Shown here: positions 41,794 through 44,090 of the stretch, in pieces
Numbering within the stretch: the stretch's first letter is position 1
Layout of the letters: every line of letters begins with the position of its first letter
Assembly (NCBI RefSeq): GCF_002177135.1
Contig: NZ_MWPH01000001.1
Coordinates: 186,001-250,000 of the forward strand
Direction: 5' to 3'
Length of the DNA stretch: 64,000 nt
Origin: Natronolimnobius baerhuensis
Lineage (GTDB): Archaea; Halobacteriota; Halobacteria; Halobacteriales; Natrialbaceae
Notes under the pieces: generated by a model
Databases searched by the model: none
What the model was told of the DNA's origin: nothing
Seen by the model: only the letters and a program-made list of their open reading frames with translations
Position numbers and translations under genes: made by a program

Positions 41794-42141
41794 ATGACAG
41801 TTGCGCGTACCGTCGAACTCGAGGGTCACATCATCGACTCGGGGACGATGGGCCACTGCTTCGGCGCCGTGATGGACATGGGCGGAGAATTCGAGGTCGA
41901 GGCGTTCGAGGTTGGCCGCCACACGCACGAAGAGACCTACTGTCGGATGCGGGTGCTGGCCGAGACTGAGTCGGACCTGCGGGCAATTTTGCACGAACTC
42001 AACCAGCAGGGCGCGACCGTGGCTGATCCCCGGGATGCCACGCTCGAGGCTGCGCCCGAAAACGGGGTCGTGCCGGTCGAGTTCTACAGGTGGTTTAAGG
42101 CGAGTGCCTCGGGGTCGTACGGAAATCGGAGATTTCCGTGA
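41794..42141 (+). pseudogene. archaeal ornithine cyclodeaminase (TIGR00300/LOR-SDH family), N-terminal fragment cut by IS
   Basis: The first 98 codons encode the conserved N-terminal domain of the TIGR00300 family, whose methanogen member converts ornithine to proline and ammonia. Marks are ARTVELEGHIIDSGTMG, FEVEAFEVGRHTHEETYCRM and AILHELNQQGATVADPRDAT. Homology stops after PVEFY at base 42087. The next 17 codons (RWFKASASGSYG...) are transposon sequence, ending in a stop at 42139-42141. The matching C-terminal part resumes at 43617. The middle of the protein, roughly 150 codons by my recollection of a family length near 400, is missing, so this is not a simple insertion. The fragment cannot be an active enzyme. 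Confidence 0.8.
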
Positions 42142-42181
42142 TGACGAGACGCTTTGCGTCTCGAACCACTTGACCCCGAGG
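42106..42181 (+). repeat. left branched double-hairpin module of the IS element
   Basis: CCTCGGGGTC (42107-42116) pairs with GACCCCGAGG (42172-42181), closing a junction that holds two hairpins. Hairpin 1 is ACGGAAATC/GATTTCCGT (42119-42127 with 42131-42139, loop GGA). Hairpin 2 is CGAGACGC/GCGTCTCG (42145-42152 with 42156-42163, loop TTT). The module is a direct repeat of 43530-43608 with differences concentrated in stems and loops. Confidence 0.85.
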
Positions 42182-42221
42182 GTGAAGCCGACAACGCCTA
42201 ACCTATCAACGCTAATCCATA

Positions 42222-42228
42222 CCTTTAC
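42222..42228 (+). promoter_or_regulatory. TATA box for tnpB
   Basis: CCTTTAC is 26-32 bases upstream of the tnpB ATG at 42254, inside the left end of the element. A short CTAATC/GATTAG inverted repeat (42212-42217 and 42245-42250) straddles the start region. Confidence 0.45.
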
Positions 42229-42253
42229 AACACCCAAGTCCGTCGATTAGGAT

Positions 42254-43519
42254 ATGGAAAAGTCGCTCACGAAGACACTCGTCTTCCAACTGCAATCCGA
42301 TAACGAGCGACTTCTTTCCGAGGCGTACCACGAAGCCCGATGGGTGTACAACCGGACCATCCGATTAGCGAAAGACGGGATGGACTGGGACGACATCTCA
42401 CCGCGTCTCGAAGACGACGCCGACCTCGTGAAGAACACTACGCAACGCATCGTCGCCAAGGCACTTGATGCACTTCAGCAGTCCTACGACCGCGACGAGT
42501 ACAACACCCCCAGTCACGAGAAAGCGGGGGCGTACCCGTTGCGAATGAACTTCACCGAAGGCTACAACCTCTCCCTCGAAGACGGCGAGATACACTACCG
42601 GGTTAGTGCCAAGCCGTACAATCCGGTGAAAGGCACACTTCGTGGCGCACCAGACAACCTCGAACTTCTCGAACAAGCCCTCAAAAGTGACGAATGGAAA
42701 GTAGGAACCGCCGAAGCGATGAAGCGCAACGGCAACTACGAACTCCACGTCAACGTTACTCACCTCGAAGCCACTGTTCAGGACAAAACGGACGCTCAGA
42801 CCGTCGTTGGTGTGGACATCAACGAGGACTGTGTAGCACTCGCTGCACTCCGCGAAGACGACATTGATGATTCGGTGGTCATCGACTACCCTGAAATCAA
42901 GCAAGAGCGTCATCGGTACTTCACGATGCGAAAGCGAATGCAAAACGCTGGTCAGACAGCGTTCGACCGCGTGTTCGAGGACAAGGAAGAACGGTACGTT
43001 CACGATCAACTCCACCAAGTCTCCCGGCGAATTGTGGAGTGGGTTCAGCAATTCGAGTCGCCGCTCGTTGTGTTTGAAGACCTCAAGCACATGCGAGATT
43101 CGATTGATTACGGCACTCGGATGAATCGTCGATTGCACTCGTTGCCGTTTCACAAACTCCGTTCGTTCGTCGCGTACAAAGCGGCGTTCGAAGGGATTCC
43201 GAACGATAACATCGACCCGGCTTACACCAGCCAGACGTGTTCCTTCTCAAAGTGTGAGCATATGGCTCGGTCGAATCGCCGGAAGAAGCGGTTTAAGTGC
43301 AAAGCGTGTGGTCGGCAAGACCACGCTGACCGGAACGCGGCAGTGAATATTGCGAAGAAAGGATTGGAGAAGTTGAATCGAAATGTGCCTGCTCTCAACA
43401 CGTTGCCAACTGTTCGGAAACTGCGACGGCAGGCATCGGGCTGTGTGAACCAGCCGACCGTGACCCACGCAACCGTTCGAGGCCACCAAGCCGATGGTCG
43501 CGTGGGAGTGTCCGATTAA
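42254..43519 (+). CDS. tnpB: TnpB RNA-guided nuclease of an IS1341-type element
   Basis: The 421-residue protein is a complete TnpB. The N-terminal wedge/REC part starts [20 protein letters not shown]. The RuvC-like catalytic triad is present as Asp188 in [10 protein letters not shown], Glu275 in [12 protein letters not shown] and Asp359 in DHADRNAA. A zinc ribbon with Cys329, Cys334, Cys349 and Cys352 lies between the last two motifs ([11 protein letters not shown] and CKACG). Relatives are omega-RNA-guided DNA nucleases that help the element persist. All key residues are intact, so activity is likely. No tnpA transposase is adjacent, so movement would need one in trans. Confidence 0.93.
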
Positions 43520-43616
43520 ACCACGGGAAGCCTCGGGGTCGTTCGGAAGATCTTCGATCTTCCGTGATGACGAGACGCCTCGGCGTCTCGAACCACTTGA
43601 CCCTGAGGCGGTTCAC
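43450..43616 (+). ncRNA. candidate omega-RNA (reRNA) of TnpB
   Basis: In characterised TnpB systems the guide RNA scaffold overlaps the 3' end of tnpB, runs to the right end of the element and uses the flanking DNA as guide. The stem GCCTCGGGGTC/GACCCTGAGGC with two internal hairpins at 43530-43609 occupies that place. The scaffold would end at GGTTCAC (43616) and the guide would begin GGCACGTCGCTGGGCGTC in the broken cyclodeaminase gene. The 5' end is a guess. The call is by analogy. Confidence 0.5.
43530..43609 (+). repeat. right branched double-hairpin module of the IS element
   Basis: GCCTCGGGGTC (43530-43540) pairs with GACCCTGAGGC (43599-43609), with one G-T wobble. Inside are CGGAAGATC/GATCTTCCG (43544-43552 with 43556-43564, loop TTC) and CGAGACGCC/GGCGTCTCG (43571-43579 with 43582-43590). 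Compared with the left copy the stems differ by compensated changes and added pairs, while the linkers GTGATGA and AACCACTT are identical. Confidence 0.85.
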
Positions 43617-44090
43617 GGCACGTCGCTGGGCGTCGACACCGAGAGCTTAGAGCACCCACGTACGGGCCACAAACACCACATCTACACGATCAGCGAGATC
43701 GTTCGTCTCGGCGGAATCGCAGAAGCCGTCGCCGAGGACGTTGTCGACGAAGGCGTGATGTACGAGTGTGTCACAAATGACGTGCCGTTCGTCCTGGCTG
43801 GTTCGATCCGCGACGACGGGCCGTTGCCCGATACGATCACCGACGCACTCGAGGCGCAAGACGCCATCCGCGAGCAGGCCCAGGAAGCCGACCTCGTTCT
43901 GATGCTTTCGACGCTGTTGCACTCCGTGGCCGTCGGAAACTGCCTTCCCTCGACCACGAAAACCGTTTGCGTCGACATCAACCCCGCGACCGTTACCCAG
44001 CTACTCGACCGCGGCAGCGCACAGGCCATCGGACTGGTCACCGACATCGGAACGTTCCTGCCGATGCTCCGAGACGAGTTACTCGAGTGA
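43617..44090 (+). pseudogene. archaeal ornithine cyclodeaminase (TIGR00300 family), C-terminal fragment
   Basis: The last 157 codons of the broken gene encode [20 protein letters not shown], then [40 protein letters not shown] and [16 protein letters not shown], all strongly conserved NAD-binding-domain blocks of the family. The fragment is in a different frame from the N-terminal part. An open frame continues upstream through the IS right end to 43494, so a hybrid 198-residue polypeptide could in principle be made, but no promoter or start of the original gene precedes it. There are no internal stops or frameshifts, which suggests the break is recent. Confidence 0.8.

What the first reader, a model, noticed from the sequence alone, without database searches (positions are those of the whole stretch)
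42106..43609. Twin branched double-hairpin modules with compensatory changes flank tnpB
The modules at 42106-42181 and 43530-43608 are direct repeats whose linkers are identical. Each has a closing stem (10-11 pairs) and two inner hairpins. Where the copies differ, pairing is kept or extended: stem 1 is CGGAAATC/GATTTCCG on the left and CGGAAGATC/GATCTTCCG on the right, and stem 2 gains a pair with a different loop. This pattern of covariation implies selection on structure, as DNA ends for transposition, as RNA, or both. In known TnpB systems a simple terminal hairpin of the omega-RNA sits at the right end; here that stem carries a 57-base branched insert, and the same object is repeated at the left end. 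I do not know a description of this duplicated branched design.
Basis: partly seen in the sequence, partly recalled or inferred. Interest (0 to 1): 0.85.

Follow-up and report, generated by a model that had tools for sequence, protein, structure and literature searches.

The report
Mobile double-hairpin repeats in transposon ends
The two odd branched structures flanking this gene are the ordinary end-hairpins of a haloarchaeal IS605-type transposon, each with a ~55-base, two-hairpin mobile repeat inserted into its loop; the repeat is scattered across nearly all salt-loving archaea and also sits inside other genes and intergenic regions.

Summary
In detail: modules at 42106-42181 and 43530-43608 are closely similar, strongly folding, and differ by compensated changes. 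The reading as a dedicated 'twin branched' end design is not supported. The element (42088-43616) is an IS605-type TnpB transposon. Its closest relatives (TnpB 89-92% identical) mostly have simple end hairpins, GCCTCGGGG-CTTG-ACCCCGAGGC. In the window each loop has gained a 54- or 57-nt insert, TCGTNCG-hairpin-CGTGATGACG-hairpin-CGAACCA, exactly at G|C with no target duplication. Relatives carry it at neither end, left only, or right only; among elements read at both ends, only two (both in this genome) carry it at both. The same unit occurs in 57 of 61 genomes of the order and 0 of 164 sampled genomes of the phylum outside it. It also sits in frame in tnpA, in the omega-RNA-coding end of tnpB, and 3' of aIF1A, where a congener has the empty site. 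Elements with unit-bearing ends still occur as multiple copies. Stems pair 98.6% Watson-Crick with almost no G-U and reciprocal loops, pointing to DNA-level upkeep rather than RNA selection. Closest known: SMR-A repeats of Haloquadratum, which insert in the same place, and REP dimers. How the unit moves is unknown.

The parts
41794..42087 (+). 5' part of a disrupted host ornithine cyclodeaminase gene (TIGR00300), ending in the target sequence TTCTAC (42082-42087)
   Evidence: TIGR00300 profile 3-98; 87% DNA identity to the intact gene of a congener ends exactly at 42087
42088..43616 (+). IS605-type (IS1341-like, tnpA-less) element, from the base after TTCTAC to ...GGTTCAC
   Evidence: host homology stops at 42087 and resumes at 43617; end motifs shared with relatives
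42106..42181 (+). left-end module: terminal hairpin arms GCCTCGGGG (42106-42114) and CTTGACCCCGAGG (42169-42181) with an insert in the loop
   Evidence: insert-free form GCCTCGGGGCTTGACCCCGAG in relatives
42115..42168 (+). 54-nt double-hairpin mobile repeat unit in the left end
   Evidence: covariance model R1, 80.2 bits; sequence match to dispersed copies
42254..43519 (+). tnpB (421 aa), RNA-guided endonuclease TnpB family
   Evidence: NF040570 143 bits, PF07282; motifs [20 protein letters not shown] and cysteine pairs of the zinc-binding region read directly in the translation
43383..43505 (+). probable omega-RNA scaffold inside the 3' end of tnpB
   Evidence: Rfam RF02657 sot2652, E 1.3e-7, 43.7 bits, below the gathering score of 61
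43530..43609 (+). right-end module: terminal hairpin arms GCCTCGGGG (43530-43538) and CTTGACCCTGAGGC (43596-43609) with an insert in the loop
   Evidence: insert-free form in relatives
43539..43595 (+). 57-nt double-hairpin mobile repeat unit in the right end
   Evidence: covariance model R1, 71.7 bits
43612..43616 (+). right-end cleavage-type motif TTCAC, last bases of the element
   Evidence: shared with relatives; host sequence resumes at 43617
43617..44090 (+). 3' part of the disrupted host gene; 462 bp (154 codons) of the gene are missing between the two parts
   Evidence: TIGR00300 profile 247-404; comparison with the intact gene L201

Best explanation
Shown: 42088-43616 is an IS605-type TnpB element of haloarchaea. 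Its ancestral ends are simple hairpins with a 4-nt loop. In this copy a dispersed mobile repeat of 54-60 nt has inserted into the loop of each end hairpin, at GGGG|CTTG. The repeat is two hairpins in inverted arrangement, TCGTNCG-h1-CGTGATGACG-h2-CGAACCA, with a near-palindromic variant TGATCA / CGAACGA. It inserts precisely at G|C (consensus YGNNG|C), leaves no target duplication, and has the same orientation in all end hairpins. Inferred: insertion in the loop keeps the foot of the hairpin, the flanking guide-like bases and the cleavage motif, so the transposon stays mobile and the repeat rides along; on the RNA side the right-end copy would only lengthen the apical part of the omega-RNA's last stem-loop. 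Inferred with less support: the repeat itself moves as a single-stranded, Y1-transposase-like substrate (no target duplication, short 5' target, a hairpin next to each end), with the enzyme supplied in trans. Its stems are kept perfect by DNA palindrome correction or hairpin exchange rather than by selection on an RNA.
For: Simple ends in 89-92% identical relatives (Natronorubrum bangense, Halosimplex and G006 at both ends; Natrinema hispanicum at the right end, and a simple left-end hairpin in the raw listing), right-end-only unit in Haloferax gibbonsii, left-end-only in L072. Exact empty/filled pairs: end hairpins; tnpA TGTCG|CTCC with or without 54 nt; aIF1A 3' site TTTTGCGCTG|CGGGC empty in congener G001 and filled with 60 nt in G000. 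Target at 40 distinct non-end sites: -1 G 38/40, +1 C 39/40, -5 C or T 39/40, -4 G 28/40. 57 of 61 order genomes positive; 31 of 33 in-order and 0 of 164 out-of-order in a phylum sample. Unit-bearing ends still spread: G045 ~447-bp PATE with a unit in its left end and a simple right end, copies 88-94% identical with unrelated flanks; three Haloquadratum MAG copies with a unit in the right end and different flanks. Stems: 1324 of 1343 cells Watson-Crick, 5 G-U, 14 mismatches; loops TTC/GAA 40/29, TCC/GGA 13/12; otherwise identical Haloquadratum units differ only by loop TCA against TGA.
Against: No enzyme is tied to the repeat. Units occur in genomes with no detected Y1 transposase (for example 26 matches in G041, 23 in G022), and the correlation of unit count with Y1 count is only moderate (Spearman 0.38). 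Movement of single units is inferred from empty/filled sites between species, not seen between strains. That both units in the window came by separate insertions, rather than by gene conversion from the other copy in this genome, is not proven.
Confidence: 0.88

Rival explanations
1. The twin branched modules are a purpose-built end architecture: both copies are needed, as structured DNA ends or as omega-RNA parts, and are kept by selection on structure.
For: Strong folding, compensated changes, both related elements in this genome have both modules.
Against: Closest relatives lack one or both; the same unit sits in tnpA, tnpB and non-transposon sites; covariation is the same everywhere and lacks G-U.
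Confidence: 0.04
2. The unit is a transcribed RNA element (for example a processing signal, terminator or omega-RNA extension) spread by selection for an RNA function.
For: Right-end copies lie where the omega-RNA's last hairpin is transcribed; some solitary copies lie just 3' of genes such as aIF1A; a conserved GTGATGA linker.
Against: G-U pairs 5 of 1343 cells, far below what RNA-level selection usually leaves (general knowledge); the unit is found in reverse orientation in coding sequence; no Rfam family matches solitary copies; most aIF1A loci examined lack it.
Confidence: 0.1
3. The repeat is a defence-like or parasitic element that inactivates IS605 transposons by landing in their ends, as proposed for SMR-A in Haloquadratum.
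For: Strong bias to IS605/PATE end hairpins (31 of 79 distinct sites) and to tnpA/tnpB; some tnpA copies carry a stop from the unit.
Against: Elements with a unit in an end have multiplied; some inserts in tnpA are in frame and stop-free (G000:C2:91733-92116, no stops).
Confidence: 0.25
4. The left and right units are not separate insertions: one end was copied onto the other, or from the other element of the genome, by recombination between similar ends.
For: All units are similar; arms appear mixed between units (window left h1 equals L072 left h1, but h2 differs); L074 looks like recombination between two units in tnpA.
Against: The two window units differ in both hairpins and in length (54 against 57 nt) and each sits exactly at GGGG|CTTG.
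Confidence: 0.3

Closest known systems
SMR-A small mobile repeats of Haloquadratum walsbyi (HqIRS42, 43, 55; Dyall-Smith et al. 2011, PMC3119063)
   Same: Short, transposase-free, complementary ends, no target duplication, preferential insertion inside the near-terminal palindromes of IS605-type transposons and PATEs, mode of mobilisation unknown.
   Different: SMR-As are about 110 bp; this unit is 53-62 nt with two hairpins, is spread over nearly the whole order, and is also found in tnpA, tnpB and intergenic sites. SMR-A sequences could not be compared because the supplements were not available.
REP / REPIN dimers, especially CGTC-tagged REPs (Di Nocera et al. 2013, PMC3733652)
   Same: Two small hairpins in inverted orientation, hairpins of differing sequence in one dimer, a short tag at the foot (TCGT here), a CCA-like tail, insertions inside genes, no dedicated transposase known for CGTC types.
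   Different: The tag is TCGT[TAC]; stems start with C-G and G-C rather than with the AT pairs reported for CGTC families; the spacer is a short fixed TGATGA/TGATCA; archaeal; strong preference for IS605 end hairpins. Not one of the four published CGTC families.
IS200/IS605 end hairpins, PATEs and terminal-only PATEs of haloarchaea
   Same: The outer stem, flanking target TTCTAC and end motif TTCAC are ordinary IS605-type ends; similar palindromes at both ends are known.
   Different: The inner branched part is not part of the ancestral end.
Rickettsia palindromic elements (RPE)
   Same: Small palindromic repeats that land in frame inside protein genes.
   Different: No sequence relation was tested here; the hosts are unrelated. 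Comparison partly from general knowledge.

Membership tests
IS605-type (TnpB) transposon | tnpB of the guided endonuclease family with intact motifs | tested here: met
IS605-type (TnpB) transposon | subterminal palindromes at both ends, short 5' target, no target duplication | tested here: met
   TTCTAC| at the left...TTCAC| at the right, host homology exact at both junctions. The host gene also lost 462 bp at the right junction
IS605-type (TnpB) transposon | Y1 tnpA in the element (only in autonomous members) | tested here: not met
   absent in the window copy, so it is an IS1341-like member; present in the related copy L021 and others
SMR-A | inserts within near-terminal palindromes of IS605/PATE elements | tested here: met
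   31 of 79 distinct unit sites
SMR-A | no target duplication, complementary termini | tested here: met
   empty/filled pairs; TCGTTCG...CGAACGA
SMR-A | length about 110 bp | tested here: not met
   units are 53-62 nt
SMR-A | sequence homology to HqIRS42/43/55 | not testable with these tools
   sequences are only in supplements that are not held; a Haloquadratum MAG does carry this unit
CGTC REP | unpaired CGTC tag and stems starting with AT pairs | tested here: not met
   tag TCGT[TAC], stem starts C-G, G-C in 78 of 78
CGTC REP / REPIN | inverted dimers of small hairpins | tested here: met
   h1 and h2 in mirror arrangement with shared arm sequences
Structured RNA | match to a curated RNA family | tested here: not met
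   no Rfam match for the unit in the window or in solitary copies; only sot2652 in tnpB

The most novel reading that the evidence does not exclude
A previously unnamed, order-wide family of minimal (54-60 nt) mobile elements made of two interchangeable hairpins moves as single-stranded DNA into YGNNG|C sites, favours the loops of other elements' hairpins, remodels TnpB omega-RNAs and transposase genes in frame, and keeps its stems perfect by DNA-level hairpin exchange.
Probability: 0.4. Interest if true: 0.75.

Novelty: new variant of a known kind. Interest (0 to 1): 0.5.

Why it matters
It turns an apparent new transposon-end design into a case of nested mobile elements, and gives a clear caution: compensated changes between two hairpins are not proof of selection on RNA structure when the hairpins are copies of a mobile palindrome. 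The repeat itself is a good test system for how the smallest palindromic repeats (SMR, REP, RPE) move, because it has exact empty/filled sites, a defined target and many copies. The natural inserts in end hairpins, in the TnpA protein and in the omega-RNA also show which places in an IS605 element may tolerate 54-60 extra bases.

Tried and rejected
Rfam: only a sub-threshold sot2652 match; a mir-598 match in L112 is dismissed as chance. A conserved RNA 3' of aIF1A was considered because several solitary copies lie there; rejected because most of the 30 aIF1A loci examined, including that of the congener, lack the unit. Hairpin-loop targeting as a general rule was rejected: outside end hairpins only 5 of 48 sites sit at a palindrome apex with 6 or more net pairs, although that is above the 1.3% of shuffles; the sequence YGNNG|C is the better common factor. 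A dedicated Y1 enzyme judged from genome counts: inconclusive. Phage records: no match.

Full report
OBSERVATION. They share exact stretches of 19 bases and a 26-base stretch with one mismatch, and fold with an outer stem and two inner hairpins, with z-scores of -4 to -6.4 as DNA and about -5 as RNA and no shuffle as stable. The compensated differences between the two are real.

THE ELEMENT. The gene between them is a 421-aa TnpB. A second related copy lies in the same genome (L021): left module, divergent Y1 tnpA, tnpB, right module. So the modules are the left and right ends of an IS605-type element; the window copy lacks tnpA. The element sits in an ornithine cyclodeaminase gene. DNA alignment to the intact gene of a congener ends exactly at TTCTAC (42087) and resumes exactly at 43617, which fixes the borders at 42088-43616. 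462 bp of the host gene are missing. In intact relatives the bases before the right junction are CTGTAC, CTCTAT or CTGTAT, themselves close to the target. Two insertions in one orientation followed by recombination, or a right-end self-targeted deletion, would explain this (inference).

SIMPLE ENDS IN RELATIVES. Relatives with TnpB 89-92% identical have simple hairpins GCCTCGGGG-CTTG-ACCCCGAGGC: N. bangense, Halosimplex aquaticum and G006 at both ends; N. hispanicum and Haloarchaeobius at the right end (the raw listing also shows a simple left-end hairpin in N. hispanicum). Haloferax gibbonsii has a simple left end and a unit in the right. Among elements with both ends read, units are at both ends only in the window and L021; at the left only in L072; at the right only in L069, L074, L078 and L177; the rest have none. 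The branched part is therefore an insert of 54 nt (42115-42168) and 57 nt (43539-43595) in the loop, exactly at GGGG|CTTG.

THE UNIT. TCGTNCG-h1-CGTGATGACG-h2-CGAACCA, or a near-perfect palindromic form with TGATCA and CGAACGA. A covariance model built from 27 copies finds it in 57 of 61 genomes of the order at E <= 0.001, and in a phylum sample in 31 of 33 genomes of the order and none of 164 outside it at E <= 1e-8. The window's genome has about 8 clear sites, 5 of them in the two IS605 elements.

WHERE IT INSERTS. Of 79 distinct sites, 31 are IS605/PATE end hairpins. Others: in tnpA at one site (TGTCG|CTCC; empty in L072, filled in L021, L073, L075, L088), exactly 54 nt = 18 codons, stop-free in the window's genome and stopped in some others; in tnpB near its 3' end (GGTG|CGACGGCAGGC; L074, L075, L078, L180), which is the omega-RNA-coding part; 3' of aIF1A, empty in congener G001; and in another hairpin repeat (L074, L165). 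The 40 distinct non-end sites give YGNNG|C. No empty/filled pair shows a target duplication.

STILL MOBILE. In G045 a ~447-bp PATE with a unit in its left end and a simple right end is present in several copies (four compared full length, 88-94% identical, unrelated flanks). In a Haloquadratum MAG three right ends with a unit have different flanks, and otherwise identical units differ only by the loop TCA/TGA.

WHY THE STEMS COVARY. In 78 units 1324 of 1343 stem cells are Watson-Crick, 5 G-U, 14 mismatched; 25 h1 and 22 h2 arm sequences come from a largely shared vocabulary; loops occur as reverse-complement partners in similar numbers. Selection on an RNA usually leaves more G-U (general knowledge). 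Template-switch correction of palindromes or exchange of whole hairpins gives this pattern without selection on function. This is inference; DNA-level selection is not excluded.

MECHANISM. Shown: precise insertion at G|C, no duplication, fixed orientation in end hairpins, continued spread of unit-bearing elements. Inferred: the loop insert leaves the hairpin foot and cleavage motifs intact, so the transposon tolerates it. Least certain: which enzyme moves the unit. A Y1-type single-strand route fits the anatomy, but units exist in genomes without detected Y1 genes.

KNOWN OR NEW. Dyall-Smith et al. (PMC3119063) described SMR-A repeats of ~110 bp that insert in near-terminal palindromes of IS605 elements and PATEs, without target duplication and with an enigmatic mode of movement. 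Di Nocera et al. (PMC3733652) described tagged REP dimers, including CGTC types with CCA tails and no dedicated transposase. The unit here works like both but fails the length of the first and the tag/stem definition of the second. I did not find a description of this 54-60 nt order-wide family in the papers searched; the library is partial.

Noticed in passing
41794-42087 and 43617-44090: The host ornithine cyclodeaminase gene is disrupted and lacks 462 bp beside the right end; the intact relatives' sequence before that junction (CTGTAC / CTCTAT) resembles the transposon's own target, suggesting recombination between two insertions or a right-end self-targeted deletion.
   Followed up: partly
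L021 1219-1617: A tnpA carrying the double-hairpin unit as an in-frame, stop-free 18-codon insert just before the HUH motif.
   Followed up: yes
L074, L075, L078, L180 (tnpB 3' part): The unit sits in reverse orientation inside the omega-RNA-coding end of tnpB at one shared site, truncating the TnpB reading frame with its TGA in L074, L075 and L078.
   Followed up: partly
L022 1640-1720; tnpA regions of L074 and L088: A second double-hairpin repeat family (AAGCGGGATC-loop-GATCCCGCGAGGT...GCTTTGCTTGA) also inserted in tnpA and between genes, and itself hit by the first unit.
   Followed up: no
L209, L210, L221, L228, L237: A larger palindromic repeat CTTTTGCGCTGC-hairpin-CTCGGCAAAAG lies 3' of aIF1A and elsewhere in several genera; it is a recurrent landing site of the unit.
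   Followed up: partly
L101, L036, L159, L160: A ~447-bp non-coding PATE with a unit in its left end has multiplied in one genome.
   Followed up: yes
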